Part shown: positions 41,273 through 54,127 of the stretch, one piece after another
Layout of the letters: each line of letters starts with the position of its first letter
Position numbering within the stretch: the first letter of the stretch is position 1
From: Chitinophagaceae bacterium
Lineage (GTDB): Bacteria > Bacteroidota > Bacteroidia > Chitinophagales > Chitinophagaceae
Reading direction: 5' to 3'
Length of the DNA stretch: 64,000 nt
Assembly (NCBI GenBank): GCA_947455215.1
Contig: CANGNA010000012.1
Location: forward strand, 1 to 64,000
Notes under the pieces: generated by a model
The model's input: only the letters and a program-made list of their open reading frames with translations
Told to the model about the DNA's origin: nothing
Database searches by the model: none
Translations under genes and position numbers: made by a program

Positions 41273-42181
41273 ATGGAATTCGGAAAAGTAGACGACGCTA
41301 CACTGGAACAGATAGACTTCACGCTGCCCGCAGACCCGGCGGCCAACAAGAAGATACTGGCCAAAGGCAAGGGCAAAACAAAATTCTACATCGGCTGCGC
41401 CAAGTGGGGCCGTAAAGACTGGATAGGGAAGTTATACCCTAAAGGCACAAAAGAAAAAGACTTCCTGGCGCAGTATGCCACCCAGTTCAACAGTATAGAG
41501 TTTAATGGCTTTTTCTATAGTTCGCATTCGCGCGAGCAGGTAGAGAAATGGGTAAGTATGGTACCTAAGGATTTTATCTTCTGTCCTAAGTTTACACAGT
41601 CCATCACCCACCTGCGCAGGCTTAAAAACGCACAGGCCGAGACCGACAACTTCATCAACATTGTAGAAGCCTTCGGAAAGCATCTCGGCCCGCTATTCCT
41701 GATGCCGCACCCGCAAATGAACCTCGACAAACGCGAGACCATCGAAGAGTTCATCACCAGTCTGCCCAAGGATCTTGATCTGTTCCTGGAACTGCGCCAT
41801 GAGGCCTGGTACACCGACAAAAGCGGTTACGACAAACAGTTGTACGACTTTATGGCAAAGCAAAAGAGGGGACTGGTAATAACCGATGCCGCTGGTCGCC
41901 GCGATTGCGTGCATATGCACCTCTCCACCCCCAAATGCTTCATCCGCTTTGTAGGCAACGCCCTGCACAAAACAGACTATACCCGCATAGACGAGTGGGT
42001 GCAGCGCATCAAACAATGGATGGACGAAGGCCTGGAAACCTGCTACTTCTTTATGCACCAGCACGAAGAACTCCACTCCCCCGAACTCATCGCTTACTTC
42101 ATCAAAGAACTCAACAAGCACGCCGGTACCACCATCCCACTACCTAAGTTGTATAACGAAGGAGAAGGTTCTTTATTTTAA
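41273..42181 (+). CDS. DUF72 (YecE-like) family protein
   Basis: 302 residues from the ATG at 41273. The DUF72 TIM-barrel-like pattern is clear: FYIGCAKWGRKDWIGKLYPKGTKEKDFLAQYATQFNSIEFNGFFY, FIFCPKFTQSITH, LGPLFLMPHPQMNL, LDLFLELRHEAWY, LVITDAAGR, CFIRFVGNALHKTDYTRIDEWVQRIKQW and CYFFMHQHEELHSPELIAYF. The family's conserved Glu (in SIEFNG), Arg-His (LRHEAW) and the final H-x-x-x-x-x-P are present. Members are found in most bacteria; their biochemical role is not established. Length is slightly above average because of the N-terminal 40 residues. Confidence 0.9.
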   Translation: MEFGKVDDATLEQIDFTLPADPAANKKILAKGKGKTKFYIGCAKWGRKDWIGKLYPKGTKEKDFLAQYATQFNSIEFNGFFYSSHSREQVEKWVSMVPKDFIFCPKFTQSITHLRRLKNAQAETDNFINIVEAFGKHLGPLFLMPHPQMNLDKRETIEEFITSLPKDLDLFLELRHEAWYTDKSGYDKQLYDFMAKQKRGLVITDAAGRRDCVHMHLSTPKCFIRFVGNALHKTDYTRIDEWVQRIKQWMDEGLETCYFFMHQHEELHSPELIAYFIKELNKHAGTTIPLPKLYNEGEGSLF

Positions 42182-42500
42182 AAGTTGAGTAGTCGCAAAG
42201 ACACCTACGGAGTGTCACACTGAGTAAACAATTAGCTGCGCTCAAGAACTTTGCAAATGACACAGGGTCTCTGCGAGCCTGCCTGCCGACAGGCAGGGAA
42301 CGAAGCCATCTCACGTCGGGACGTATTCGTTTTCGGCAAATCCCCTCTTTGCCAAGCCTTGTGCGTTGGCCCAAAGAGGGGACGATATTTGACCATTCTC
42401 GGATTAGCCGAGATTGGTCAAATGTAGGGGGTGATTGCTGTGTCGGGACGTATTCGTTTTAGGATGTTGGAACGATAACTGCGGGAATTGATCCAGACGA
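42182..42500. repeat. Repeat island 1 with two GGACGTATTCG tails and hairpins
   Basis: No gene. The constant tail GGGACGTATTCGTTTTCGG occurs at 42318..42336 and, with one change, at 42445..42463. Between them are two hairpins: TCCCCTCTTTG pairing with CAAAGAGGGGA, and TTTGACCA-x-TCTCGG pairing with CCGAGA-x-TGGTCAAA. Upstream, 42209 onward carries GTGTCACACTGAG, related to the elements at 48050 and 53468, and CTGCCTGCCGACAGGCAG. Confidence 0.75.
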
Positions 42501-42929
42501 TCATTTCAACAACCCCTTCATATCCACAACCAGCTTCCTGCACCTTATGCTGGTTACCTTTATCGTAGAAATGCTATCGGCGCTGCAAAACCAGAACTGA
42601 CCAATGCTATCAACAGGCAATATAGTTGTATGCACGGGGTAAATGATTTTGACACTAACAAGTTTGTTCTCCAGCATATTGCATAATGGTGTAACAACAC
42701 GCCCATATATCATAGAGTCATTAAGTCGGGTCAGCAGAAGAGAAGCCTGTTCCTCAACAATACAACCATCCCTCCGAAATAATGCGTAGTCTGGCACCCT
42801 GTTTACAATATGCCTGTTATGTTTATGACCGTTATAGAAAAAGTCTGATAGCTTATAAGGATAATCACTTCGTGCACTTCTGCATGATAGCGCGGAAAGA
42901 AGAAATATAAATAACCATAACTTACCCAT
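42501..42929 (-). CDS. Putative small lipoprotein, hypothetical
   Basis: 142 residues from the ATG at 42929. A short signal peptide (GKLWLFIFLLSALSC) ends in a lipobox Cys at about residue 16, followed by R-S-A-R-S. The mature part is mixed beta-rich without recognised motifs; it contains cysteines in RDGCIVEE, TPLCNML, FWFCSAD and TSIRCRK. It lies between repeat islands with no same-strand partner nearby. No family recognised; kept because signal peptide and full-length frame are coherent. Confidence 0.5.
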   Translation of the reverse strand: MGKLWLFIFLLSALSCRSARSDYPYKLSDFFYNGHKHNRHIVNRVPDYALFRRDGCIVEEQASLLLTRLNDSMIYGRVVTPLCNMLENKLVSVKIIYPVHTTILPVDSIGQFWFCSADSISTIKVTSIRCRKLVVDMKGLLK

Positions 42930-42988
42930 CAAAAGAATAACGGAAAGCGGTCATCAAATATTTCAACCTAATTCAAAAAAGGAAGATC

Positions 42989-43053
42989 CGTAACTGTCGC
43001 GAGAGTTCAGCGCTCTCGTGACCACACAAATAAGCGAATCTCCTGATTCGCCG
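42989..43053. repeat. GTCGCGAGAG double-hairpin repeat, copy 1
   Basis: Hairpin 1 at 42996..43022 (GTC-G-CGAGAG / CTCTCG-T-GAC), linker ACACAAATAA, hairpin 2 at 43034..43051 (GCGAATC / GATTCGC). A second copy is at 51707..51774. Confidence 0.75.
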
Positions 43054-43099
43054 AACAAAATACTAATAGATCCTATTAATAACAGCTACAAAACAAAGC

Positions 43100-43142
43100 A
43101 ATCCTGTAAATCCTTAAATCCTGACCATCCTGATTCAGACAA
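43100..43142 (-). repeat. TTGTCTGAATCAGGAT-type 3'-end repeat, copy 1
   Basis: On the minus strand: TTGTCTGAATCAGGATGG, then TCAGGATTTAAGGATTTA, then CAGGATT, 9-base AGGATT units. It starts two bases after the holA stop codon. A second copy lies at 52012..52055 behind the GNAT gene, also sense. Confidence 0.75.
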
Positions 43143-43143
43143 A

Positions 43144-44136
43144 CTAATTCAGCAGTTGCCCCACCAGCTCCTTCAGCAACTCCCTGTCATCAGCCGTGCT
43201 TTTAATACCCACGGCCATAGTGCTGTACTTGCCTAAGAGCATCAGCGCGCGCTCGGTGCGCGGGCGTGGCCACTGCTGTAGGGCGGCCATTGTTTCCTTC
43301 AGCTTCCAGTAGCCAAGGGCAGCGGCTATCTCCTTATCGCTCTTACCCTGCACAAAGCTGGCCTGGTACAGCTTGCTGAAGTGACTGTAAAAACTGCCTA
43401 TCAGCAGCGGCATAGGTGCCGCCTTGGGGCTGCTGATAAAGTAATGCAGCATACGGAACATTTTATCACGGTCATTGCCCGTAATAGCCTCTGGAAATTC
43501 GAAAATGTTATACTCCCTGCTGATGCCGATGTACTTCTGTATCATGGCCGCCGTAAGCTCCTTCTCGTCCGGCACATTGATGCGCACCTTCTGTATCTCG
43601 TTCACTACCTTCTGCAGGTCATTACCTAAAAAGGTAGCCAGTATCTGTGCCTCACGCTCGGGTATGGTAAAGCCTATGTGTTTACCATAGTCCATTATCC
43701 AGCCTGGCATGGCAGTGTCTTTTATCTTCTCGCTGTTAAAGTAAAAGCCTTTTTCCTTGGCCAGCTTCACGGCCTTGGTCTTGCTATCAGCCTTCTTAAA
43801 ACGGTATTCTATCAGCAGTATAGTAGTGGGCGAGGGTTTCTCAAAATAGCCGGCCAGCTCGGTAAACTCCTTTAGTTGCCCTGCTTCTTTTAATATCACC
43901 ACCTGCTTTTCCGCAAACATCGGGAAGCGGCGGCAGGCATTTACTACATCGGCCCAGGTCACATCCTTGCCATATAGTGTTATCAGGTTAAAGTCGCGCT
44001 CGTGCGGCGGTAGTATATTTTCAAAGTGTGTGCTCAGTTCATCTATATAATAGGGTTCCTCACCGTCTACCAGGTACACGGGTGCGTATTGCTTCAGCTG
44101 CAGCGATTGCAGTATTTTGGTGTATTCAGCATTCAT
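43144..44136 (-). CDS. holA: DNA polymerase III subunit delta
   Basis: 330 residues. The clamp-loader delta architecture is visible: N-terminal YAPVYLVDGEEPYYIDELSTHFENILPPHERDFNLITLYGKDV, WADVVNACRRFPMFAEKQVVILKEAG, the AAA+ lid-like FLGNDLQKVVNEIQKVRI and FEFPEAITGNDRDKMFRMLHYFI, and a C-terminal helical domain (ALGYWKLKETMAALQQW). Delta opens the beta clamp during loading onto DNA. It starts one base after the end of the upstream exonuclease gene, so the two are very probably cotranscribed. A degenerate repeat follows directly after the stop codon. Confidence 0.92.
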   Translation of the reverse strand: MNAEYTKILQSLQLKQYAPVYLVDGEEPYYIDELSTHFENILPPHERDFNLITLYGKDVTWADVVNACRRFPMFAEKQVVILKEAGQLKEFTELAGYFEKPSPTTILLIEYRFKKADSKTKAVKLAKEKGFYFNSEKIKDTAMPGWIMDYGKHIGFTIPEREAQILATFLGNDLQKVVNEIQKVRINVPDEKELTAAMIQKYIGISREYNIFEFPEAITGNDRDKMFRMLHYFISSPKAAPMPLLIGSFYSHFSKLYQASFVQGKSDKEIAAALGYWKLKETMAALQQWPRPRTERALMLLGKYSTMAVGIKSTADDRELLKELVGQLLN

Positions 44137-44137
44137 A

Positions 44138-44866
44138 CTATTCTGTCACTATCTCTTGTTCCAACTCTATATTGCCCATACCTGCCAGCCGCAGATACAC
44201 CTTGGCCGATGTATATACATCCTGCAGGCAGTAGCGGCCTATACGGTCCAGGTCTTTTTCTTTGTAAAACACCCCTGACACCTGGCTGCCGTCAATGTCA
44301 GATTTAGGCGAAGGTATGTCTAAAACTGCCGCCAGCAGCGACAGCGAAGTGAAATTTTTATAGTCGCCAAAGCGCCACATATCCATGGTATCTATATGCG
44401 TTACCTCCCATGGCTTCTTGCCCCACAGTTGCAGGCATTCCGGCAGCGCCTGCCCGTTGATGATCATCCTGCGAGACAAGAATGGTATGTCAAATTCTTT
44501 GATGTTATGCCCGCAAAAACGCATGCCCGGGTGCACTTTGTTGAACTTGCTCACCACCGTACAAAAATCATTTAACAAAACCTTTTCGTCAGTTCCTGTC
44601 AACGATTTCAGCCGCATTTTCCATTTGTTATCGGCCATATAAAGGCTGCCTAAACCAATGCAAACCACCTTGGCAAATTCCGAAAAAACACCTGCCTTTT
44701 CCTCGAAAAGGCTTGCCGGCTCTGCATTTTCATGCCCTGGGGCAGGTTTTATCACTTTGGCCTTCCGCACCCATTCATGCTGTAAACGCTCTGTTAAAGA
44801 TGCGTAATGCTCTGTAATTGGTACGGTTTCTATGTCGATGAACAGTATACCCGTCAGTTGCTCCAT
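44138..44866 (-). CDS. DEDD-type 3'-5' exonuclease (PolB-like proofreading fold)
   Basis: 242 residues of the ribonuclease H-like exonuclease fold. Exo I is LFIDIETVP (Asp and Glu), Exo II is FCGHNIKEFDIPFLSRRM (Asp), and Exo III contains GRYCLQDVYTSAKVYLRL (Y-x-x-x-D, the DEDDy form). The intermediate HIDTMDMWRFGDYKNFTSLSLLAAVLDI segment is typical of the predicted PolB-like exonuclease family in Bacteroidota. It probably trims or proofreads DNA; the substrate is untested. Located one base ahead of holA on the same strand, suggesting a replication or repair role. Confidence 0.88.
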   Translation of the reverse strand: MEQLTGILFIDIETVPITEHYASLTERLQHEWVRKAKVIKPAPGHENAEPASLFEEKAGVFSEFAKVVCIGLGSLYMADNKWKMRLKSLTGTDEKVLLNDFCTVVSKFNKVHPGMRFCGHNIKEFDIPFLSRRMIINGQALPECLQLWGKKPWEVTHIDTMDMWRFGDYKNFTSLSLLAAVLDIPSPKSDIDGSQVSGVFYKEKDLDRIGRYCLQDVYTSAKVYLRLAGMGNIELEQEIVTE

Positions 44867-44879
44867 TGGAAACTATGTA

Positions 44880-44887
44880 TATATTTG
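44880..44887 (+). promoter_or_regulatory. Bacteroidota -7 element for the coiled-coil membrane protein
   Basis: TATATTTG, exact TAnnTTTG match, 42 bases before the ATG at 44930. Confidence 0.6.
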
Positions 44888-44929
44888 CACAGAATTTAAT
44901 CAGTTAAGTAAAATCACACATCCACAATT

Positions 44930-45874
44930 ATGAGCCAATTTAATGATTCCGGCGCAAATATGCCGGCTCAAAACGAGAATAAGAGCAAACCAATAGTGTA
45001 TTGGGTTGTTATCGCTGTGCTGCTCGTGGCTTGCATAGCACTTTTTGTAAGTAAAAATCAGCAGGCTACCGACAGCGAAGCTAAAGAAAAAGCCATGCAA
45101 TCGCAGCTCGATTCTGTTCGTACTGATCGCGCTTCCCTTGATGCTGACTTCAAGGCGGCTTCAGCTAAGATAGATGAGTTGGTATCTCAGAATGCCAAGC
45201 TCGATAGCAACATGCAGAAAGACAAGTCTGAATTGCTCGCTATGCAGTCTAAGATAAAAGGCATGCTGGCCAAAGGCAATGCCACCGCTGCTGAGCTGAA
45301 GAAGGCACGCCAGATGATCACCGAACTCACAGATAAGGTAGGCCGCTACGAGGCGCGTATCGCTGAGCTCGAGAAAGAGAATGGTGTCCTCACCAACAAG
45401 AACCAGGTCCTCACCAAGGAGCGCGACTCCACAGTGGCACAGAACATCAATATCAAAAGGATAGGTTCTGTACTGCACGCTTCTAACATCCGCATGGAGC
45501 CTATACACAAGAAGAAGAATGGTAAGGAAAAAGAAACTACCAAGGCTAAGAAGGTAGACGTATTCCGCATCAAGTTCGATATCGATGAGAACCGCATCGC
45601 TGAAAGCGGCACTAAGCAGATCTACATCCGCATGGTAGCTCCTGATGGTTCTGTAATGAGCAGTGCTTCTAATGGCTCTGGTAAAATGACAACAGCTAAG
45701 GGCGAGAACATCAGCTTCTCTATCATGAAGGAAATATCTCTGGTAAAGGAGCAGCCTGTTAAAGACGTGGTTATCGACTGGAACCAGGATGGCGACTTCG
45801 CAAAGGGTAGCTACCTTATCGAGATCTTCAGCGAAGGTTATAAAGTAGGCGGCGGCAACGTTGTTCTGCGCTAA
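44930..45874 (+). CDS. Single-pass membrane protein with periplasmic coiled coil
   Basis: 314 residues. A polar N-terminus is followed by a membrane helix (VYWVVIAVLLVACIALFV, about residues 24-41), then a long heptad-type coiled coil (about 50-175; for example QLDSVRTDRASLDADFKAASAKIDELVSQNAKLDS and RIAELEKENGVLTNKNQVLTKERDS) and a C-terminal beta domain (VFRIKFDIDENRIAESGTKQIYIRMVAPDG; VVIDWNQDGDFAKGSYLIEIFSEGYKVGGGNVVLR). Similar proteins occur in many Bacteroidota as conserved hypotheticals. It could span or organise the periplasm; no enzymatic motif. Codon use is biased toward abundant-protein codons. Confidence 0.75.
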   Translation: MSQFNDSGANMPAQNENKSKPIVYWVVIAVLLVACIALFVSKNQQATDSEAKEKAMQSQLDSVRTDRASLDADFKAASAKIDELVSQNAKLDSNMQKDKSELLAMQSKIKGMLAKGNATAAELKKARQMITELTDKVGRYEARIAELEKENGVLTNKNQVLTKERDSTVAQNINIKRIGSVLHASNIRMEPIHKKKNGKEKETTKAKKVDVFRIKFDIDENRIAESGTKQIYIRMVAPDGSVMSSASNGSGKMTTAKGENISFSIMKEISLVKEQPVKDVVIDWNQDGDFAKGSYLIEIFSEGYKVGGGNVVLR

Positions 45875-45906
45875 GTAGTAGCTAAGAGCCCCCGAAACAT
45901 GGTCAA

Positions 45907-45951
45907 GCCCTGAAAGGGCGTGCTATTATAGCGCAGGGTTTCAACCCTGCG
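45907..45951 (+). repeat. Double-hairpin repeat, variant with covarying stems
   Basis: GCCCTGAAAGGGC, linker GTGCTATTATAG, then GCAGGGTTTCAACCCTGC. Same architecture as the units at 39340, 47938, 48185, 48405 and 56175, but both stems have different paired sequences. Confidence 0.75.
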
Positions 45952-45982
45952 GCTTAAGCGGGCAGAAAAATATAGAACATAC

Positions 45983-46035
45983 AATACGGCATTATAAAAT
46001 TCACTTAACAATTTTATAATGCCGTATTTTTTTTT
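45983..46035 (+). terminator. Very strong terminator before the two-component genes
   Basis: A 19-bp perfect stem (45983..46001 with 46010..46028; core AATACGGCATTATAAAATT) and loop CACTTAAC, followed by nine T residues. It ends the transcript of the coiled-coil protein gene. Confidence 0.9.
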
Positions 46036-46080
46036 GTTACTCGCCTCTATGGTAATATTGCTTTGTATTAAGTACAAATT

Positions 46081-46767
46081 ATGGATCTATTCCCCGGGAA
46101 GATACTGATAGTAGATGATGAACCAGATATTGTAGAGTTTATCAGCTACAATCTCAAAAACAAAGGATACCTTATTGCCACTGCCAACGACGGCGTACAG
46201 GCTATCCGGAAAGCAAAAGAATTCCGCCCCGACCTCATTCTCATGGACGTTATGATGCCCAACAAAGATGGCATGGAAGCAGTAAAAGAACTGCGCATGC
46301 TGCCTGAGTTCGAAGACACAGCCATCATATTCCTTACCGCACTCAACGATGAGAAGTACGAGATAGAGGGCCTGAAGATCGGTGCCGATGACTTTATCTC
46401 CAAGCCTATAAAGCCGGAAGTATTAGCCACCCGTATAGCTGCTACCTTGCGCAGGTTCAAGAAAGAAGAGAACCAGGAACAGAAGCTTACTTTCGGTGAT
46501 CTCGAGATCAACAAAACCAAATTCACCGTTTACTACAAGGGCGAAGAGATACAGCTGGCCAAGAAAGAATTTGAACTGCTTTCGCTGCTGGCCTCAAAGC
46601 CGGGTAGGGTATTCCTCCGCAACGAGATATTGCAGCGCGTATGGGGCACCGATGTTATAGTTGGCGACCGTACTATCGATGTACATATCCGCAAGATCAG
46701 GCAAAAAGCCGGTATCGATCTCATCACTACCGTAAAAGGTGTTGGTTATAAGTTCGAATTAGAGTAG
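46081..46767 (+). CDS. OmpR/PhoB-family response regulator
   Basis: 228 residues. Receiver domain (residues about 8-120): acidic pair in VDDEPDIVEF, phospho-acceptor Asp56 in LILMDVMMPNKDG, Thr/Ala switch in IIFLTALND and Lys in DFISKPIKPE. The winged-helix output domain (about 132-228) has LTFGDLEINKTKFTVYYKGEEIQLAKKEFELLSLLASKPGRVFLRNEILQRVWGTDVIVGDRTIDVHIRKIRQKAG and GVGYKFE, as in PhoB. A histidine kinase gene starts ten bases after its stop codon. The pair resembles PhoB/PhoR; phosphate control is an inference supported only loosely by a PstS-like gene 2 kb away. Confidence 0.95.
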   Translation: MDLFPGKILIVDDEPDIVEFISYNLKNKGYLIATANDGVQAIRKAKEFRPDLILMDVMMPNKDGMEAVKELRMLPEFEDTAIIFLTALNDEKYEIEGLKIGADDFISKPIKPEVLATRIAATLRRFKKEENQEQKLTFGDLEINKTKFTVYYKGEEIQLAKKEFELLSLLASKPGRVFLRNEILQRVWGTDVIVGDRTIDVHIRKIRQKAGIDLITTVKGVGYKFELE

Positions 46768-46777
46768 TTTTAGTATC

Positions 46778-47848
46778 ATGTCGGTACTCGATACTAAAAA
46801 TATCACGCCGGGCTCTCTGTCTTTTTTTACAGCGCTCATCATTTCAGTCATCAATGCTGCTCTAAGCTTGCTGGTACACCCGCTGTGGTATACGCCTGTC
46901 ATTGTATTCACAATTACATTCGTTATCATCTACAGCCTGTATTACTATACCCTGCAGCGCTTCATTTATCGCAAGATTAAGCTCATCTACAAGTTCATTT
47001 ACCAAACCAAGGCCACTAAGAAGGAAGAGATATTTTATAAGCATATCCTCCCTCAGAAAACCATAGAAGAGGTAAGCGACGACGTAGAAAAATGGGCGCA
47101 GCAACGCAACGACCAGATAGAGTTACTGCAAAAGAATGAACAGTTCCGCAAAGAGTTCCTCATGAACCTGGCCCATGAACTGCGCACCCCCATATTCTCT
47201 GTTCAGGGCTATGTCGATACTTTGCTCAACGGAGCGCTGGAAGATGAGAATGTCAACCGTAAATTCCTTTCTAACACTTCCAAAAGTATTGATCGCCTGG
47301 TAAGGCTGGTCGATGATCTCGACGAGATATCTAAGCTGGAATCCGGCAAGATACCCATCATACAGGAGTCCTTCATTATACAAGAGCTCATCAGCGATGT
47401 GTATGAAGAATTCATGCTGAAGGCCAAGGAAAAGACCACCGAACTCTTGTTCAAAAAGGGCACAGAACGCCCGTTATGGGTTAAGGCAGACAGGGCCAAG
47501 ATCAAACAGGTGTTGGTGAACCTGGTGGAGAACGCACTGAAATACGGTAACGAAGGTGGCACCATAACAGCCGGCTGCTATGTGGTCGATGAAAAGTCGA
47601 TATATATAGAGATATCGGACAATGGCCCCGGCATTGCCGAGGAGCACCTGCCCCGCATCTTCGAACGCTTTTACCGTGCCGACCGCAGCCGCGCCCGCCA
47701 CATCGGCGGCACCGGACTGGGTCTGGCCATTGTAAAGCACATCATAGAAGCCCATGGCCAAACGGTAAACGTCCGCAGTAAACTCGGTGTCGGCTCCTCC
47801 TTCGGCTTCACCCTCGACAAAAGCGAAGCCACACAGCGCTTCATCTAA
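46778..47848 (+). CDS. PhoR-like sensor histidine kinase
   Basis: 356 residues. Two N-terminal hydrophobic segments (FFTALIISVINAALSLLV and YTPVIVFTITFVIIYSLYYY) with almost no periplasmic loop, then a short linker and the dimerisation domain with phospho-acceptor His133 in NLAHELRTPIFSVQGY. The ATPase domain contains the N box (NLVENALKYGNEGG), G1 (ISDNGPGIAEEHLPRIFERFYR) and G2 (GGTGLGLAIVKHI). With virtually no extracytoplasmic sensor it probably senses membrane or cytoplasmic signals, or depends on partner proteins, as PhoR does. It forms an operon with the response regulator ten bases upstream. Confidence 0.95.
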   Translation: MSVLDTKNITPGSLSFFTALIISVINAALSLLVHPLWYTPVIVFTITFVIIYSLYYYTLQRFIYRKIKLIYKFIYQTKATKKEEIFYKHILPQKTIEEVSDDVEKWAQQRNDQIELLQKNEQFRKEFLMNLAHELRTPIFSVQGYVDTLLNGALEDENVNRKFLSNTSKSIDRLVRLVDDLDEISKLESGKIPIIQESFIIQELISDVYEEFMLKAKEKTTELLFKKGTERPLWVKADRAKIKQVLVNLVENALKYGNEGGTITAGCYVVDEKSIYIEISDNGPGIAEEHLPRIFERFYRADRSRARHIGGTGLGLAIVKHIIEAHGQTVNVRSKLGVGSSFGFTLDKSEATQRFI

Positions 47849-48474
47849 CCCTCTCGCTCACTCAAACGCCGCTGTCCTGTCTTCAGACTGACAGCTCCCG
47901 GGACGTATTCGTTTTCGGATCGACAACCCATCCCCACCGTCCTGTAAGGACGGGCTACCATAGCCCGGGGTTTCAACCCCGGGAATCTTGGGACGTATTC
48001 GTTTTTGGACACCCCGCAATAATTCTCAATGACGATAACCACCACATAGTGTCACCCTGAGCTTGTCGAAGGGCGGCACGGACATGGGCTCTCGCAATCA
48101 CTCGGAGCACTAACATCACCTCCGCGCCACAGGTAAAGCTATTACGGCATGCGGTAGGGCCAAGGTTTAATTAAGCATCCCCACCGTCCTGTAAGGACGG
48201 GCTATCATAGCCCGGGGTTTCAACCCCGGGACACCCGGGACGTATTCGTTTTCGGAAAACTATAACAACACGCCGCCGTTGTGCCTCCCGTCCAACGGCC
48301 ACTGGACGTATTCGTTTTCGGATACAACAAAAGCGCCGCTGTCCTGTCTTCAGACTGACAGCTCCCGGGACGTATTCGTTTTCGGATCGACAACCCATCC
48401 CCACCGTCCTGTAAGGACGGGCTATCATAGCCCGGGGTTTCAACCCCGGGAAATCGGGACGTATTCGTTTTCGG
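47849..48474. repeat. Repeat island 2: six GGACGTATTCG tails, three double hairpins, duplicated blocks
   Basis: No gene. Constant tails at 47900, 47990, 48237, 48303, 48367 and 48456 (each 19 bases). Double hairpins CGTCCTGTAAGGACG / CCCGGGGTTTCAACCCCGGG at 47938..47983, 48185..48230 and 48405..48450. The block 47868..47983 is nearly identical to 48329..48450. The segment 48012..48093 is shared with 53431..53513. Predicted peptides across this island are chance frames through the repeats. Confidence 0.85.
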
Positions 48475-48545
48475 ACATTCCATCACATTCCATCACATTC
48501 CATCACATTCCATCACATTCCATCACATTCCATTCCATCACATTT
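48475..48545. repeat. 10-bp tandem repeat (CATCACATTC)
   Basis: Five perfect copies of CATCACATTC at 48481..48530, with partial copies on both sides (ACATTC before; CATTCCATCACATTT after). It starts directly at the last GGACGTATTCG tail and lies about 50 bases upstream of the promoter at 48596. Confidence 0.9.
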
Positions 48546-48595
48546 ATGGAAAACCACCACACACACCGTCTTTATTAAAATGCCGCACTAATAAC

Positions 48596-48603
48596 TACAT
48601 TTG
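48596..48603 (+). promoter_or_regulatory. Bacteroidota -7 element for the small-membrane-protein/pstS-like/TPR operon
   Basis: TACATTTG, exact TAnnTTTG match, 18 bases before the ATG at 48622. Confidence 0.6.
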
Positions 48604-48621
48604 CGGCGGAAACAAACACAC

Positions 48622-48855
48622 ATGAGCGCAGAAGACAATCAGAACGCCAACAGTAAAGCAGCCTCTTTCAGGGCTATACTCGATTTTGTTATGGGTACCA
48701 TCTATGTCGTCCTTGCCGGTGTTATCCTTTATAGCAGGCACTTCGGTACTATCGAGCTGCCGCCGGCCACTGTTTACGGCATGAGCGGGCTACTGATAGT
48801 ATATGGTATATTCCGTTTGTACCTGGGCTATAAAAGGTATAAGCAGGAGCGTTGA
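48622..48855 (+). CDS. Small two-helix membrane protein
   Basis: 77 residues from the ATG at 48622. A polar, Asn/Ser-rich head (SAEDNQNANSKAASFR) leads to two hydrophobic helices (DFVMGTIYVVLAGVILYS and VYGMSGLLIVYGIFRLYLG) and a basic tail (YKRYKQER). Such short proteins are found next to PstS-like and TPR genes in Bacteroidota TonB-associated clusters. It has its own -7 element and is the first gene of a three-gene unit; the next gene begins 96 bases later. Function unknown; membrane location is predicted. Confidence 0.7.
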   Translation: MSAEDNQNANSKAASFRAILDFVMGTIYVVLAGVILYSRHFGTIELPPATVYGMSGLLIVYGIFRLYLGYKRYKQER

Positions 48856-48951
48856 TCAACGTTTGAAGCCCAGCATTTTGCTGTTAAATTATTGTTACAA
48901 ACATTTGTTGCAGCAGGCTGTTTTTTTGAATAATTACTAAACTTGTGGTTT

Positions 48952-49866
48952 ATGCGTAGTCGGGCGTTTTTATTGCTGATAGCTTCTTTTACTTTCCTGG
49001 GTGTTTCCTGCGATGATGGACCTAAACACCCCGATACGCCCACTTCCGGTGCTATCGATATTTCTGTTGATGAGACCTACAGGTCTGTAATAGAAGAACA
49101 GTCAAAAGTATTCGACAGCAGCTTCCCCAATGCAAAGGTTACCGTGCACTACAAGCCCGAGGCCGAATGCTTCAAAGACTATTTCGATAATAAGGCCCGC
49201 ATCATATTGGTTACGCGCGAGCTTACGCCCGAAGAAAAGAAGGTGGCCGATCAGAAGCAGTTCTATCCAACATCGGTTGGTTTGGTGAAAGATGCAGTGG
49301 CGCTCATCGTTAATAAAGAGAACCCCGATAGCATCATGGATGTGCCTATGATCAAGGGCATCCTCACTGGCGAATACACCAAAAAGAAATACACAGTGGT
49401 GTTCGACAATCAGTCGTCGAGCCTCGTACGCTATATCACCGATTCTTTGCTCAAAGGTCAGAAGCTGGGTCCCAACGTATACGCTGCCAAAAGTGCCAAA
49501 GCGGTCATCGATTACGTGAAGGAGAATCCCAACGCGCTCGGCTTCTCCGGCCTTTGCGATATTGGCGACACGGCCGACCCGGGCAACACCGGCACCTTCC
49601 TCAAGAGTGTTCAGGTAGTGTCCGTATATAACGATACGTTAAAACAATACCTCAAGCCATACCTCGCGTATATTGGTTTGAAGGAATACCCGTTTGTTCG
49701 TAAGTTATATTACATTAGCCGCGAAAGTTACCAGGGACTTGGCACGGGCTTTGCAAACTTTTTAATGGGCAACCGCGGACAGCTTATATTTGCGTACGCT
49801 CACCTGTACCCCCTGCGTATGGAGGTAACAATAAGAGAAGCTGAAATAAACACAAACAAAAAATAA
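48952..49866 (+). CDS. PstS-like phosphate-binding-family lipoprotein
   Basis: 304 residues from the ATG at 48952 (TTG at 48943 rejected). The signal peptide RAFLLLIASFTFLGVSC carries a lipobox with Cys at about 20, followed by D-D-G-P. The body follows the type II periplasmic binding fold of PstS: GAIDISVDETYRSVIEEQSKVFDSSFPNAKVTVHYKPEAECFKDYFDNKARIILVTRELTPEE, VGLVKDAVALIVNKENPDSIMDVPMIKGILTGEYT, and a C-terminal lobe with NALGFSGLCDIGD. No pstCAB transporter genes are adjacent; these orphan PstS-like lipoproteins often accompany TonB/TPR genes in this phylum. The bound ligand may or may not be phosphate. Confidence 0.85.
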   Translation: MRSRAFLLLIASFTFLGVSCDDGPKHPDTPTSGAIDISVDETYRSVIEEQSKVFDSSFPNAKVTVHYKPEAECFKDYFDNKARIILVTRELTPEEKKVADQKQFYPTSVGLVKDAVALIVNKENPDSIMDVPMIKGILTGEYTKKKYTVVFDNQSSSLVRYITDSLLKGQKLGPNVYAAKSAKAVIDYVKENPNALGFSGLCDIGDTADPGNTGTFLKSVQVVSVYNDTLKQYLKPYLAYIGLKEYPFVRKLYYISRESYQGLGTGFANFLMGNRGQLIFAYAHLYPLRMEVTIREAEINTNKK

Positions 49867-49888
49867 ATAGTAAACAGGGTTAAATAAA

Positions 49889-51523
49889 ATGAGAAAATTC
49901 ATCACGTTCACCGCTGCTCTGGCTATCTCTGCGGCGGCAACAGCACAAACCACTAATGATGGTATCAAGCTGTACAATTATCATAACTACGTAAGCGCTG
50001 AGAAAGTGCTTACCCCGCTATCTGTAAAAGATGCTTTGGCCAACTATTATCTTGGCTTGTCTTACCTCGAAGGGGGTAACATCAGCAAAGCAAAGTACCA
50101 GTTCGAAAAGTATCCTGAAGATGCTGCGAACATCTCCGGTACTGCACGCGTGGCCTTTGCACAAAAGGATGCTGCAAAAGGTATGCAGATAGCACAGGGC
50201 CTGGCTGCCAAGGCTAAGAAGAAGGACTATATGCCATGGGTATATGCTGCCGATGCGCTTACTTATTCTGAAGACGCCGATTACCAGCAGGCTGTTAACT
50301 GGTACAAGAGTGCCCTCGCTGCCAATCCAAACGATGCGCACGTTCATCTCGGCCTGGCCGATGCTTACCGCAAGGTAATGGGCGGTGGCGGCGAAGCCAT
50401 GAACAACTACGAATGGATAGTGGACAAGGACCCTAAGAATTCATTGGTGTTCAGCCGCATTGGCGACCTTTGGTACGATGCCCGCAACTACAATAGCGCA
50501 CTCGAATTTTACAACAAGGCCAAGGATGCTGATGCTACCAACCCACTGCCATACCGCTCACTTTCCCTGGCGTTCCAGCGCTCGGGTAAGTACGATGTGG
50601 CGCTGACCAACATCAAAGAGTACATCAAACTGTCAGATAACACCGTTGCCGACCAGATCAGCTATGCCGGTATCCTGTACCAGGCGAAGAGCTACTGCGA
50701 TGCTGCCAGGCTGGCTAACGACCTGATGACCCAACAGGTGCCTGACGATAAGAAGGCCGAACTGGTGGGTATCCTCGGTTTCTCACAGGCAGAATGTGGC
50801 GACTCTATCGAGGCTGCTAAGAACATCCGCAAATACTTCAGCATCCAGAAGCCTAAGAACATACTGCCTGCTACTTACATAGAGTATGGTAAGCTGTGGC
50901 TGAAGCTGAATAACGTAGACTCTGCAAGCTATTATTACAATAAGGGTATAGCTGCAGATACTGCTGCTAACAAGACCGACATCTACCGCCAGATAGCAGA
51001 AGCTTACCGCACGCGTAAAGAATACTGCAGCGCCGGCGACTGGTATGCTAACCTTGTAAAGAGCAACCCTAACACACAGGCGCTCGACTATTTCTGGGGT
51101 ACAGTAATGTATTACTACTGTAAGGATTGGAAGAAGTCACTCAAGTTTGCCGAAGACTTCGAAACCAAGTATACCGACCAGGTATCTGCTACCTACTGGC
51201 ACGCCCGCGTACAGTCTGCTATCGACTCTGAAGCTACAACCGGTATGGCTGCACCGTCATTCGAAAAATGGCTCGACAAGCTTGGTCCTGATGTAGCTAA
51301 GCCGGAAAAGAAGGCTGATGTGGTTCGTGCTTACCAGTACCTGCTGTTCTACAATTACAATGCTAAGAACAAGGACAAGCAAAAAATGTACATGGACAAG
51401 CTGCGCGCAGTGGATCCTAACGATGGCCTCATCAAGCAGATAGAAGAAATGGAAAAAGGCGGTGGCACCCCTAAGAAAAGCGGCGCAACAACCAAGCCCG
51501 CAACCACCCCAAAAAAAAAGTAA
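49889..51523 (+). CDS. Secreted tetratricopeptide-repeat protein
   Basis: 544 residues with signal peptide MRKFITFTAALAISAAATAQ. Tandem TPR-like helix pairs cover residues about 25-500; clear units include YMPWVYAADALTYSEDADYQQAVNWYKSALAANPNDAHVHLGLADAYRKVMG, NSLVFSRIGDLWYDARNYNSALEFYNKAKDADATNPLPYRSLSLAFQRSGKYDVALTNIKEYI and a late YRQIAEAYRTRKEYCSAGDWYANLVKSNPNTQALDYFWGTVMYYY. The C-terminus is a basic, Gly/Thr/Lys-rich tail. It starts 22 bases after the PstS-like gene. A periplasmic scaffolding role in a TonB- or envelope-associated assembly is inferred from repeats and context. Codon use suggests high expression. Confidence 0.85.
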   Translation: MRKFITFTAALAISAAATAQTTNDGIKLYNYHNYVSAEKVLTPLSVKDALANYYLGLSYLEGGNISKAKYQFEKYPEDAANISGTARVAFAQKDAAKGMQIAQGLAAKAKKKDYMPWVYAADALTYSEDADYQQAVNWYKSALAANPNDAHVHLGLADAYRKVMGGGGEAMNNYEWIVDKDPKNSLVFSRIGDLWYDARNYNSALEFYNKAKDADATNPLPYRSLSLAFQRSGKYDVALTNIKEYIKLSDNTVADQISYAGILYQAKSYCDAARLANDLMTQQVPDDKKAELVGILGFSQAECGDSIEAAKNIRKYFSIQKPKNILPATYIEYGKLWLKLNNVDSASYYYNKGIAADTAANKTDIYRQIAEAYRTRKEYCSAGDWYANLVKSNPNTQALDYFWGTVMYYYCKDWKKSLKFAEDFETKYTDQVSATYWHARVQSAIDSEATTGMAAPSFEKWLDKLGPDVAKPEKKADVVRAYQYLLFYNYNAKNKDKQKMYMDKLRAVDPNDGLIKQIEEMEKGGGTPKKSGATTKPATTPKKK

Positions 51524-51538
51524 AAAAATAAAGTAATT

Positions 51539-51577
51539 ATACAACAAGAGCCGCTCACAGAGCGGCTCTTGTTGTAT
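51539..51577 (+). terminator. Terminator-like hairpin after the TPR operon
   Basis: An 18-bp perfect stem from ATACAACAAGAGCCGCTC (51539..51556) with ACA loop, followed by TTTAAA. Confidence 0.8.
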
Positions 51578-51585
51578 TTAAAATC

Positions 51586-52011
51586 CTGGTCGAAGCGTCC
51601 CGCTTCGTCCACACTACATCCTCGTCCTCGTTTGTAACGAGGATGCACCGGCGGCGCGTTTGTAACGCGCGTGCAACATCAGTCATTACACCCACACATC
51701 CCATATCGTAACTGTCGCGAGAGTTCAGCGCAGCGCTCTCGCGACTACGCAAGTAAGCGAATCCCCCGATTCGCCGGATAAAACATTGATTGTTGTCGGT
51801 GGTGATTACTGCTTTGTCCTCGCCGAGTCTCTCGAAGCTTGGTCGCTGTGCGTAAGCGAGGACTCGGCGATAACCACATGAGTGCTTAACCGCCCAAAAA
51901 TCATGAGCAACCCAACGCTGGTCGAAGCGTCCCGCTTCGTCCACAGCATTGCAAAACCCCGCTTGCGAAATGCTCGTCCTCGTTTGTAATGCGTGCACCA
52001 GAAGGGAACAC
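51586..52011. repeat. Repeat island 3: CGAAGCG hairpins, GTCGCGAGAG double hairpin, long stem
   Basis: No gene. CGAAGCGTCCCGCTTCG occurs at 51591..51607 and 51923..51939, each followed by TCCACA and a GTCCTCGTTTGTAA word. Further hairpins: CATCCTCG / CGAGGATG (51617..51645), GCGCGTT / AACGCGC (51654..51670), the GTCGCGAGAG double hairpin copy 2 (51714..51774), and TCGCCGAGTC / GACTCGGCGA (51820..51870). Confidence 0.75.
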
Positions 52012-52055
52012 AATTCTGTAAATTCTTTAATTCTGGCCAATTCTGATTCAGACAA
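52012..52055 (-). repeat. TTGTCTGAATCAGAAT-type 3'-end repeat, copy 2
   Basis: On the minus strand TTGTCTGAATCAGAATTGG, then CCAGAATTAAAGAATTTACAG, starting 11 bases after the GNAT stop codon. Compared with copy 1 at 43100 the unit word has changed from AGGATT to AGAATT throughout, as if the whole array converts together. Confidence 0.75.
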
Positions 52056-52065
52056 CCTCACACCC

Positions 52066-52350
52066 CTACACCAACACATCCCTTATCTCCTCCACCTTCT
52101 CAAATACCGCATTGGCATATGGGCACACAGGTATCACCTTTATCTCGTTCTTGCGGGCAAACGCCACCAGCCCATTCAGCAACTGCCGACCCAGGCTGCG
52201 CCCTTCAAATGCTTCCGCTACCTCGGTATGCTCTATCACCAGGTAGCCCTCGTCGGTGTAAGAATAATACATGCCGGCTATCTCGTTCCCGTCGCTGTCA
52301 TTAATGAAGAACTTGCCGCGTTTACCATTATCGTTTTGTAATACTTCCAT
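52066..52350 (-). CDS. GNAT-family N-acetyltransferase, short form
   Basis: 94 residues from the ATG at 52350; an upstream in-frame stretch to 52416 would add 22 residues without family character. The compact GNAT-like (NATD1/YjdJ) domain shows EIAGMYYSYTDEGYLVIEHTEVAEAFEGRSLGRQLLNGLVAFARKNEIKVIPVCPYANAVFEKVEEI, including the acetyl-CoA loop E-G-R-S-L-G-R-Q-L and the C-P-Y-A terminal block. Substrate unknown. It is isolated between repeat island 3 and a phage-like HTH gene on the opposite strand. Confidence 0.88.
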   Translation of the reverse strand: MEVLQNDNGKRGKFFINDSDGNEIAGMYYSYTDEGYLVIEHTEVAEAFEGRSLGRQLLNGLVAFARKNEIKVIPVCPYANAVFEKVEEIRDVLV

Positions 52351-52552
52351 GGCTTTTTTACTGTAAATATAAGCTGTCTGTAATGGTCTTTTGTTAATGT
52401 CGCCCGACATATCCACATTTTCCGCAGCACCTGCAAGCCAATACTGGCAAGGCTTTACAAAGCTACGATAGCCGATTTATGTGTATATCTCAGCCTGCAC
52501 CCAGTTGGCAGAGTGCCTGTTGCCACCATACCTTTACAGCAAACTTTATCTC

Positions 52553-53332
52553 ATGACCATGCAACAACAGCAAGCCTGGGCAACCTACACCTCGGGCAGT
52601 GCAACTCAAAAGCAGATCGCCGCGCAAGCGGGCGTTTCAGAAAAGACAGTGTACAACTGGACCAGGCAATTCGGCTGGCATGCACAGCGCCAGCAGCAAC
52701 ACGAATATTACAGCACCATATCCACTAATCTATGTACACAGATCATAGCCTGCCAGCAGGCCATCACCGATAGGGGAGACCTGCCCACACCTAAGGAATT
52801 CAATATGCATGCGCGGCTCATCAATAGCGTACTGAAGCTGGACAAAGCCGTGGGTAAAACAGCACCGGCCGATACCTTGACCGCATTCCTGGAGTATGTG
52901 GCCGGCTACAACGAAGAACTGGGTGGCCAGCTGCTCGATCTATACCTGGCCTATGCACAGTCGGTAGAAAAGAAAAAGACAGCCCGCAAACAACCGGTAA
53001 AAACCGGAAACCAATCGAAAACAACCAGTAACGACGCAGTAACAATACCGGCCACCGCAGTGCCGGAGAAGGCACCCATTACCGAACAAGACTTTAAAGA
53101 ATATAAACACCTGCTAAACACAAATCAACCGGTAACGGACAACCACACAACACGCTTCCGTGGCCGTTTCGTCAACACACGCTGGTTGCAATACAATCTG
53201 CTGCAATATTGCCTGCCGCCCACCGAGCGCCGCTTCATAGGCGATGCCCGCAAAATACGCACAGACACAGATCCCAACCTCATACAACAACAAATAGCCC
53301 AATACGGCAACACACTAAAGCCCGCCGCATGA
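52553..53332 (+). CDS. Orphan terminase-small-subunit-like HTH protein
   Basis: 259 residues from the ATG at 52553 (52559 alternative). The N-terminus is a helix-turn-helix of the phage terminase small-subunit or gpP-related type: SGSATQKQIAAQAGVSEKTVYNWTRQFGWHAQR. A helical middle (KEFNMHARLINSVLKLDKAVG; FLEYVAGYNEELGGQLLDLYLAYAQSVEKK) follows, then a basic, Thr/Pro-rich linker and a C-terminal segment with EYKHLLNTNQPV, RGRFVNTRWLQYNLLQYCLPPTERRF. No terminase large subunit, portal or other phage gene is near. It is flanked by repeat islands and reads with Gln- and Thr-rich composition unlike its neighbours. It may be a phage remnant or a domesticated DNA-binding protein. Confidence 0.65.
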   Translation: MTMQQQQAWATYTSGSATQKQIAAQAGVSEKTVYNWTRQFGWHAQRQQQHEYYSTISTNLCTQIIACQQAITDRGDLPTPKEFNMHARLINSVLKLDKAVGKTAPADTLTAFLEYVAGYNEELGGQLLDLYLAYAQSVEKKKTARKQPVKTGNQSKTTSNDAVTIPATAVPEKAPITEQDFKEYKHLLNTNQPVTDNHTTRFRGRFVNTRWLQYNLLQYCLPPTERRFIGDARKIRTDTDPNLIQQQIAQYGNTLKPAA

Positions 53333-53639
53333 TGTCACCAACCGCCGCCGTTGCGTCTTCTGACCAACGGCCACGGGACGTATTCGTTTTGTATCAAAAG
53401 CACGGGTCTTTGCGAGGTGTTATTCGGGAAGCCCGCAATCATTTTCCAATGACAGTAACCACCACATAGTGTCACACTGAGCTTGTCGAAGTGCGGCACG
53501 GACACGAGCTCTGTCATTGGCAGGAACGAAGCAATCTCGCATCGAAATGAACCTAAACCCACAAGTCTCACCAATAGAAAATTATTGCCACGGTGAGCCT
53601 GTCGAACCGCGATAATAATTTTCGCCACGGCATCGCCGC
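53333..53639. repeat. Repeat island 4
   Basis: No gene. CCGTTGCG...CCAACGG hairpin-like head (53349..53370) and the tail GGGACGTATTCGTTTT (53375..53390); the related head CCGTTGTG...CCAACGG precedes the tail at 48303. The segment 53431..53513 repeats 48012..48093, including GTCACACTGAGCTTGTCGAA. A further AATTATTGCCACGG / CGCGATAATAATTTTCG stretch lies at 53580..53625. Confidence 0.7.
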
Positions 53640-53675
53640 ATTAAGCCATCGAGCAATTAAGCCATCGAGCCATTA
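53640..53675 (-). repeat. AATGGCTC-family 3'-end repeat, copy E
   Basis: On the minus strand AATGGCTC, GATGGCTT, AATTGCTC, GATGGCTT. It encodes the last residues (N-G-S-M-A) and the stop codon of the SRPBCC gene, exactly as copy B does for the AhpD-like gene. Confidence 0.8.
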
Positions 53676-54127
53676 GATTCGCACAGCGCCTTTATTTGGT
53701 CCAGCACCGGCTTCCAGCCTTCGCCATTGTTGCGAGATTCCTCGTAGCGTTTCTGGCCCAGGGCTACGGTCGAGAAATCGCCCTGGCGCACATCCAGTCG
53801 GGTAGTGCCATTGGCTTCGGTAAGCGTATAGGTAACATGTACGTAGTTCTCCGGTACATCAGGCATATCGGGGTTGTTAGGGTCTATGGTGGTGTACTCC
53901 AGGAAACGGCCTGGCTCTATGGCTACCACCCAGCCCTTTACAGCTACCATATGCACGCCATTAAAAGTGCCTTCCCACGTCAGCGGGCTGCCGGGTTGGT
54001 AGTCCGACAAAGCTTCGCAGCCAAACATATAGCGCTTGGTCTGTTGCGGATTGGTAAGCATGTCCCACACCTTTTCTGCGGGAGCGTTAATGGTGATGCT
54101 GCTGTCTACATATAATGGCTGACTCAT
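53657..54127 (-). CDS. SRPBCC (AHSA1-type) domain protein
   Basis: 156 residues of the START/Bet v1-like AHSA1 family: the strand-loop start DSSITINAPAEKVWDMLTNPQQTKRYMFGCEALSDYQPGSPLTWEG, WVVAIEPGRFLEYTTI, YVHVTYTLTEANGTTRLDVRQGDFS and the C-terminal long helix NNGEGWKPVLDQIKALCESN. The hydrophobic-cavity fold binds ligands or clients; no specific role is visible. The C-terminal NGSMA and the stop are supplied by a dispersed 8-nt repeat. An AraC regulator gene lies 154 bases upstream on the same strand; the gap contains CTTTGCG-rich repeat sequence. Confidence 0.87.
   Translation of the reverse strand: MSQPLYVDSSITINAPAEKVWDMLTNPQQTKRYMFGCEALSDYQPGSPLTWEGTFNGVHMVAVKGWVVAIEPGRFLEYTTIDPNNPDMPDVPENYVHVTYTLTEANGTTRLDVRQGDFSTVALGQKRYEESRNNGEGWKPVLDQIKALCESNGSMA

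What the first reader, a model, noticed from the sequence alone, without database searches (positions are those of the whole stretch)
42318..53390. Nine copies of a constant 19-base tail GGGACGTATTCGTTTTCGG behind variable hairpin heads
Copies start at 42318, 42445, 47900, 47990, 48237, 48303, 48367, 48456 and 53375. All are on the plus strand and all are preceded by a hairpin or hairpin remnant: GCTGTC/GACAGC, CCGTTG/CAACGG, CCCGGGG/CCCCGGG, TTTGACCA/TGGTCAAA and others. A constant tail with exchangeable structured heads is not the layout of a simple REP and resembles a modular mobile or recombining element.
Basis: seen in the sequence. Interest (0 to 1): 0.65.

Follow-up and report, generated by a model that had tools for sequence, protein, structure and literature searches.

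The report
Hairpin repeats sharing one swappable tail
One bacterial genus carries scores of tiny DNA elements in which unrelated hairpins are joined to the same short tail, and heads and tails have been exchanged during evolution, which is unusual because bacterial repeats of this size are normally fixed units.

Summary
The constant part is a 15-base core, GGACGTATTCGTTTT: 9 times in the window, 62 exact copies in the genome (reversed control 0), in 7 of 11 genomes of the genus and 0 of 48 outside it. In this genome it ends units whose heads belong to four families: A (RAYT-like palindrome), B (resembles CGTC-type REPs), C (Rfam Acido-Lenti-1) and D; relatives add E. The layout is modular in both directions. 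Near-identical heads (94.6% over 74 bases, 97.0% over 67) carry this tail in one place and a second, related tail in another. At one orthologous site of two species the tail and both flanks agree while the heads differ. I read it as a new variant of REP-type non-autonomous elements with exchangeable hairpin heads and a common tail end. Movement and swapping by Y1 (HUH) transposases is inferred only: such genes are present in 10 of 11 genomes and some are flanked by head-type palindromes, but 0 of 33 Y1 loci examined carry the tail, and one tail-bearing genome has no Y1 hit. A landing-pad role, an RNA-level signal, an unknown recombination system and a passive mosaic remain rivals; an integron is disfavoured.

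The parts
42265..42317 (+). family B head (GTCATTGCGAG-type repeat)
   Evidence: sequence; same head family before the tail in 13 of 61 own copies
42318..42336 (+). tail, exact 19-mer
42340..42444 (+). family D head (double hairpin, ends GGGGGTGATTGCTGTGTC)
   Evidence: fold z -4.31
42445..42463 (+). tail, 1 mismatch to the 19-mer
47867..47899 (+). family A head (GCTGTC/GACAGC)
47900..47918 (+). tail, exact
47936..47989 (+). family C head; Acido-Lenti-1 on the minus strand at 47938-47983
47990..48008 (+). tail, 1 mismatch
48183..48236 (+). family C head; Acido-Lenti-1 on the minus strand at 48185-48230
48237..48255 (+). tail, exact
48271..48302 (+). family A head (CCGTTG/CAACGG)
48303..48321 (+). 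tail, 1 mismatch
48334..48366 (+). family A head (GCTGTC/GACAGC)
   Evidence: 48334-48452 repeats 47867-47985 with 1 difference in 119
48367..48385 (+). tail, exact
48403..48455 (+). family C head; Acido-Lenti-1 on the minus strand at 48405-48450
48456..48474 (+). tail, exact
53343..53374 (+). family A head (CCGTTG/CAACGG)
53375..53393 (+). tail; 15-base core at 53376-53390 exact, last three of the 19 bases differ

Best explanation
The nine copies belong to a genus-specific population of small modular palindromic elements. A unit is a hairpin head (about 30-110 bases), a linker of a few bases, and a tail that closes the unit. SHOWN by sequence comparison: one tail (T1) sits behind several unrelated head families; in sister species a second, related tail (T2) sits behind three of those families; near-identical heads carry either tail; one orthologous site has the same tail and flanks with different heads; the family A hairpin is kept by compensatory changes while the tail is kept as sequence. 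INFERRED: the units are non-autonomous REP/MITE-like elements spread as single strands by Y1 (HUH) transposases of the RAYT/IS200 kind acting in trans, the hairpin being the exchangeable recognition head and the tail the common cleaved end; swapping happens when the enzyme, or a template switch on the lagging strand, joins the foot of one hairpin to the tail of another unit; accumulation downstream of genes is where insertion is tolerated. I hold the modular part at about 0.85; the figure below is for the whole statement including the Y1 engine.
For: 62 exact copies against 0 in the control, 7 of 11 genus genomes and 0 of 48 others. Heads of 61 own copies: A or other hairpin 23, B 13, C 13, D 6, unassigned 6, two of which are A heads with a stem mismatch. 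Same heads with two tails: L166 and L277, 94.6% over 74 and 97.0% over 67; L174 and L250, 89.5% over 76. Same tail and flanks with different heads inside one 3.5-kb alignment at 91%. In G004, 15 matches to one 49-base G010 unit: 14 begin within four bases of the tail end; 15 matches to another unit: 8 run to the tail end, 6 stop at the head-tail junction, 1 runs past. Compensatory changes in the A stem, 14 cells against 3.4 in shuffles, 0 of 500. 70 of 72 B, C, D or E copies have no older A head above them. For Y1: own Y1 genes are flanked by A-like and C-like palindromes; Acido-Lenti-1 flanks 4 of 17 Y1 loci, on both sides in two; the four genomes richest in tails, and G009, have strong Y1 hits.
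Against: 0 of 33 Y1 loci examined (of 42 matches) has the tail at up to one mismatch within about 1.5 kb. G006 has two exact tails and no Y1 hit; G002 has strong Y1 hits and no exact tail, at 70% completeness. No clean empty site and no event of movement was seen. The different heads at one site could be two insertions at the same nucleotide. T1 and T2 resemble each other, so T2 may be a diverged T1. Family B with T2 rests on one copy. The number of further pair types in the A stem does not exceed shuffles (349 of 500), and the tail's own small hairpin shows no double-sided change.
Confidence: 0.45

Rival explanations
1. Landing pad: the tail is a fixed target sequence, and different REP families insert just 5' of it; only heads move.
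For: Same tail and flanks with different heads at one orthologous site; one tail with many head families.
Against: Tails without a head are few: 6 of 61 own copies unassigned, two of them A heads with a mismatch. The repeated unit in G004 runs to the tail end at many dispersed places. 70 of 72 non-A copies show no trace of an older A head. It does not say how the tail itself spread.
Confidence: 0.18
2. RNA-level signal: the hairpin plus tail is a 3' untranslated processing, stability or termination element kept by selection.
For: Exact copies between same-direction genes are 24 sense to 7 antisense, 13 convergent, 2 divergent; stem conservation; tail predicted to form a small hairpin.
Against: Family C copies without tail are also sense-biased, 13 to 2. 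Only one of nine window copies is called terminator-like, with the tail inside the stem. Selection alone does not copy 15 exact bases to 62 places. Downstream of phoR 0 of 9 relatives have it.
Confidence: 0.1
3. An unidentified site-specific recombination system uses the tail as its site and shuffles hairpin cassettes, integron-like.
For: Head-to-tail cassettes between tails, 44 neighbouring pairs listed (only same-strand pairs were sought); heads and tails assort; two weak cases in which identity breaks inside the tail after GGACGTA.
Against: No integron integrase above its cut-off in any of 11 genomes, though Xer-like matches are in all. Genes between tails look like ordinary host genes (by eye). 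The G006 break could be point decay of the tail.
Confidence: 0.14
4. Passive mosaic: several REP families lay side by side and were copied together, as in BIMEs, with no functional tail.
For: A 119-base stretch with head, tail and next head is duplicated in the window array with one difference; a periodic array in L110.
Against: The tail is exact in seven species with different main heads. The E-like repeat of this genome never carries it, 0 of 15 in the sample. Heads pair with two tails.
Confidence: 0.13

Closest known systems
REP elements with RAYT (TnpA-REP) transposases; Bacteroidetes Y1 subclass 2.6 with atypical flanking structures (PMC6006769, passages and one section)
   Same: Small intergenic palindromes, many copies, genus-specific, mostly downstream of genes; family A and C heads resemble palindromes beside Y1 genes of these genomes
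   Different: A constant 15-base tail shared by unrelated hairpins; heads and tails exchange; the tail is not found beside Y1 genes
CGTC-tagged REPs (PMC3733652, abstract and passages)
   Same: Family B has the ATTGC..GCAAT stem and a GTC in front; no transposase of their own is known
   Different: Published families have a four-base tag and a tail of about three bases, and head-tail dimers are negligible; here tails are 15 bases and arrays run head to tail
Acido-Lenti-1 RNA (Rfam RF01687; PMC2864571, one passage)
   Same: Family C matches it above its cut-off on the minus strand
   Different: Listed there as an RNA of Acidobacteria and Lentisphaerae; here it is a repeat that flanks Y1 genes and can carry the tail
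Integron gene cassettes (recalled)
   Same: Head-to-tail cassettes between a recurring site; structure plus short sequence
   Different: No integron integrase above cut-off, no cassette genes
Eukaryotic SINE families sharing a LINE 3' tail (recalled analogy)
   Same: Unrelated bodies joined to one 3' tail
   Different: Bacterial, hairpin bodies; no link to a reverse transcriptase was tested

Membership tests
GTAG-type REP with RAYT | GTAG tag at the hairpin foot | tested here: not met
   Tail side reads GGACG or, on the other strand, CGTCC; no GTAG in the conserved tail
GTAG-type REP with RAYT | Unit flanks a Y1 transposase gene | tested here: not met
   Tail at up to one mismatch in 0 of 33 Y1 loci; head-type palindromes without tail do flank some
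CGTC-type REP | CGTC (or TGTC, CCTC) tag, stem starting AT, about three-base tail | tested here: inconclusive
   Family B has TGTC in several G010 copies and GGTC in others, with an ATTGC stem; its tail is 15 bases; stem length not measured. On the minus strand the T1 tail itself ends CGTCC before the head
Acido-Lenti-1 (RF01687) | Covariance-model score above the gathering cut-off | tested here: met
   Family C only: four window matches at 46.6-48.7 bits, cut-off 37
IS200/IS605-type miniature element | Precise ends, no target duplication, short fixed target on one side, mobilised by a Y1 enzyme | tested here: inconclusive
   3' end near the tail end; a T-rich 5' target was suspected but the numbers are too small; mobilisation not tested
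Integron cassette array | Integron integrase | tested here: not met
   0 of 11 genomes above the cut-off
Integron cassette array | attC site with conserved core | not tested
   No attC model was run
Intrinsic terminator | G+C-rich stem directly followed by a T run | tested here: not met
   1 of 9 window copies called (48289-48308), and there the stem uses the tail's own bases

The most novel reading that the evidence does not exclude
The tail is the working site of an undescribed single-strand recombination system that cuts and joins at hairpin feet and shuffles non-coding hairpins between tails genome-wide: an integron-like exchange for palindromes, in which structure marks the head and a 15-base sequence marks the tail, perhaps cutting in the TATT loop of the tail's small hairpin.
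Probability: 0.2. Interest if true: 0.85.

Novelty: new variant of a known kind. Interest (0 to 1): 0.58.

Why it matters
How REP-type repeats arise, change specificity and outlive their transposases is open. Here heads and tails recombine in a set of related species, so exchange can be dated and tested: one head with two tails, two heads at one site, and a tail unchanged across seven species. If one enzyme treats unrelated hairpins alike through a common end, recognition by structure plus a short tail could explain why many REP families have no transposase of their own. It also suggests that the Rfam 'RNA' Acido-Lenti-1 is, in this genus, a transposase-linked DNA element.

Tried and rejected
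Integron: 0 of 11 genomes above the integrase cut-off. A known RNA family for the tail: none; in 41500-54000 only family C passed its gathering score. A recurrent gene beside the tails as engine: comparison of 695 ORFs near tails gave, by my reading of the protein starts, no transposase; one recurrent HTH/terminase-small-subunit-like family emerged, but it lies within 200 bases of a tail in only 4 of 32 distinct loci, has no hit in G009, which has tails, and shows no known catalytic domain. The tail elsewhere in nature: scan of the genome-contig collection gave 8 stretches, 6 from three MAGs of this group and 2 without a hairpin repeat in front; the single viral hit has no recognised repeat in front. 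Sense bias as proof of an RNA role: not specific to tail-bearing copies. Empty site at phoR: 0 of 9 relatives have the tail there, but gene order differs and for G009 only 437 bases were available. A T-rich target 5' of family A: too few copies. A pairing of the CGCC foot with GGACG: fits 98% of cells but hardly varies, so uninformative. Papers: searches listed no description of hairpin families sharing one tail; apart from four papers seen in passages these were listings only.

Limits: the 450-kb sample is not random, since the C6, C10, C44, C57 and C62 stretches were chosen where tails were known. Collecting by exact match inflates the apparent conservation of the 15-mer. Head classes are my own patterns; 223 of 2000 random 75-mers pass the generic hairpin rule, and 34 of 188 T1 copies at up to one mismatch stay unassigned (9 of 83 own, 25 of 105 other). 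The 16 units of the stem test were chosen from 32 listed for equal layout. Of relatives I read 18 of 18 exact copies in G005, 8 of 8 in G009, 5 of 5 in G003, 2 of 2 in G006, 24 of 60 in G010 and only a few of 67 in G004. The second tail was found in loci fetched for other reasons, so 18 is no census. Gene orientation rests on a home-made caller, and neighbouring copies are not independent.
Full report
CHECK. The nine copies are real and at the stated places: five exact, three with one mismatch, one with three mismatches at its end; shuffles give 0.02. The invariant part is the 15-mer GGACGTATTCGTTTT. The genome holds 62 exact copies, 31 on each strand, none of the reversed control; with two mismatches 146 against 22. 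Of 59 genomes searched it is in 7 of 11 of the genus (G000 62, G004 67, G010 60, G005 18, G009 8, G003 5, G006 2) and in 0 of 48 others. A scan of named genomes gave 8 stretches: six from three MAGs labelled Chitinophagaceae or Flavipsychrobacter, two elsewhere without a hairpin repeat in front.

HEADS. All 62 own flanks were read. By pattern, 61 copies (one too near a stretch end) give A or other hairpin 23, B 13, C 13, D 6, unassigned 6, of which two are A heads with a stem mismatch; 223 of 2000 random 75-mers also pass the generic hairpin rule. The 60 bases upstream fold more stably (-18.2 kcal/mol, 59 copies) than those downstream (-13.6) or random 60-mers of the same loci (-11.6). Family A is CGCC, a stem with a core like GTCTTCTGAC, CATCG or similar, then the tail. 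B is the GTCATTGCGAG..GAAGCAATCTC repeat. C matches Rfam Acido-Lenti-1 on the opposite strand. D is a double hairpin of about 105 bases. E (GAATGTCACGG..CTCGAACCGCGACATTC) is the main head of G005 and one of those of G010; in G009 7 or 8 of the 8 copies look like A by eye. In a 450-kb sample that includes stretches chosen for tails, an E-like repeat of this genome never has the tail, 0 of 15, while D has it in 3 of 3 and C in 12 of 21 pattern hits. Of 49 family C contexts 20 carry the tail; by eye none of the variants beginning AGGCCCTG or GTCAAGCCCTG does.

STRUCTURE. Sixteen A units from five species, chosen from 32 for equal layout, were aligned. The two predicted helices pair in 95.4% of cells, with 14 double-sided changes in four pairs of the head stem (shuffles 3.4, 0 of 500 as high; slid controls 0-3 cells). 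The count of further pair types does not exceed shuffles (349 of 500). The tail is predicted as a small hairpin GGACG-TATT-CGTTTT without double-sided change. An alternative pairing of the CGCC foot with GGACG fits 98% of cells but hardly varies.

UNITS AND ARRAYS. Forty-four same-strand neighbouring tail pairs closer than 260 bases (tails at up to 3 mismatches; opposite-strand pairs were not sought) show cassettes between tails, mostly A, B, C or D. In the window array a 119-base A-tail-C stretch occurs twice with one difference. Between G010 and G004, 15 matches to one 49-base unit: 14 begin within four bases of the tail end; 15 matches to another unit: 8 run to the tail end, 6 stop at the head-tail junction, 1 runs past. 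So the tail closes a repeated unit, and the same head also occurs without this tail. In G006 several A units share a longer 3' end (GTATCARTAA or close) before differing sequence.

MODULARITY. (1) One tail, many heads, as above. (2) Two tails, same heads: in G004, G005 and G010 a second tail, GGCCGGTTCTCTTTGAG, resembling the first, was found in 18 copies behind A 13, E 3, B 1 and one unassigned. The head ending ACGGGTCTCTGACCCGAACATCG has it in L166 and the first tail in L277 (94.6% over 74 bases, 97.0% over 67); a second such head pairs L174 with L250 (89.5% over 76). The switch lies at the start of the tail (both tails begin GG). (3) Same site, different heads: within one 3.5-kb alignment at 91% (G010 C305, G004 C15) the gene before, the tail and the sequence after it agree, while between stop codon and tail G010 has a B head and G004, by eye, an E-like one. 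Two insertions at the same nucleotide are not excluded. At three other orthologous sites the same head is kept: A, D and A (where the tail differs in its second half). (4) Two weak cases of identity ending inside the tail after GGACGTA: the G006 duplication, which could be point decay, and G010/G004. Of 72 B, C, D or E copies at up to one mismatch in G000, G005 and G010, 70 have no older A head above them.

WHERE. Exact copies lie: convergent 13, same direction sense 24, same direction antisense 7, divergent 2, inside 1, unclear at an edge 15 (home-made gene calls). C elements without tail are also sense-biased, 13 to 2, so this reflects the repeats in general. Downstream of phoR, where six window copies sit, 0 of 9 relatives have the tail, with different gene order.

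ENGINE. Y1 transposase matches occur in 10 of 11 genomes, 42 in all. In this genome they are flanked by palindromes of A-like and C-like make, and Acido-Lenti-1 lies on both sides of the Y1 gene in L033 and L200 and on one side in L192 and L199, 4 of 17 loci tested. But of 33 Y1 loci examined none carries the tail at up to one mismatch, and G006 has tails without a Y1 hit. The four tail-rich genomes and G009 have strong Y1 hits; G002 (70% complete) has strong hits and no exact tail. That Y1 enzymes act in trans is therefore inferred. No integron integrase passes its cut-off.

KNOWN KINDS. From the abstract and passages of PMC3733652: most REPs carry a GTAG or CGTC tag; CGTC REPs lack a transposase, end in about three bases, and their head-tail dimers are negligible. 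From passages and one section of PMC6006769: Bacteroidetes subclass 2.6 Y1 genes are flanked by atypical structures. These are the nearest relatives of the heads. An exchangeable 15-base tail is not described in the passages I saw, nor listed by the searches. I file this as a new variant of REP-type elements, not as a member of a named REP family, since the GTAG tag and the Y1 linkage of the tail were tested and not met.

VERDICT. New here is that heads and tails assort both ways, with one same-site head difference; missing is the enzyme and a witnessed move.

Noticed in passing
window 45906-45951, 47938-47983, 48185-48230, 48405-48450 (minus strand); L033, L200, L199, L192: Rfam Acido-Lenti-1, listed as an sRNA, is here a dispersed palindrome that flanks Y1 transposase genes in inverted orientation (both sides in two loci, one side in two, of 17 tested); it may be a REP rather than an RNA gene.
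   Followed up: partly
window 52481-53332 and about 32 relatives (L148-L177 and others): Multi-copy gene family (HTH or terminase-small-subunit-like N-terminus in some members, conserved C-terminal WLxYNLxQYCLPxxxRxF; PHROG 4151 E 1.1e-14) beside Y1 genes in five places (gaps 221-492 bases); 22 of 31 upstream regions hold TATCCACA or TGTGGATA (DnaA-box-like, from recall) against 55 of 620 control windows, 8 as an inverted pair 69-71 bases apart.
   Followed up: partly
G006 C79 and C130 (L153, L161): Two copies of that gene, 93% identical over 859 bases, both end in a family A hairpin and tail; 3 of the 4 G006 tails matching GGACGTATTCRTTTT lie within 700 bases of this gene. It could be a captured or helper gene.
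   Followed up: partly
window 48475-48533: Perfect tandem array of ACATTCCATC, 5.9 copies, directly after the last tail of the array.
   Followed up: no
window 48041-48096 and 53461-53516: Another interspersed repeat (GTGTCACCCTGAGCTTGTCGAAGGGCGGCACGGACATGGG type) that lies among the units but never carries the tail in the sample, 0 of 15.
   Followed up: partly
L277 1560-1720 and L300: At an orthologous family A head G010 and G004 differ by a paired change (GCCGGTC..GACCGGC against GCCAGTC..GACTGGC).
   Followed up: no
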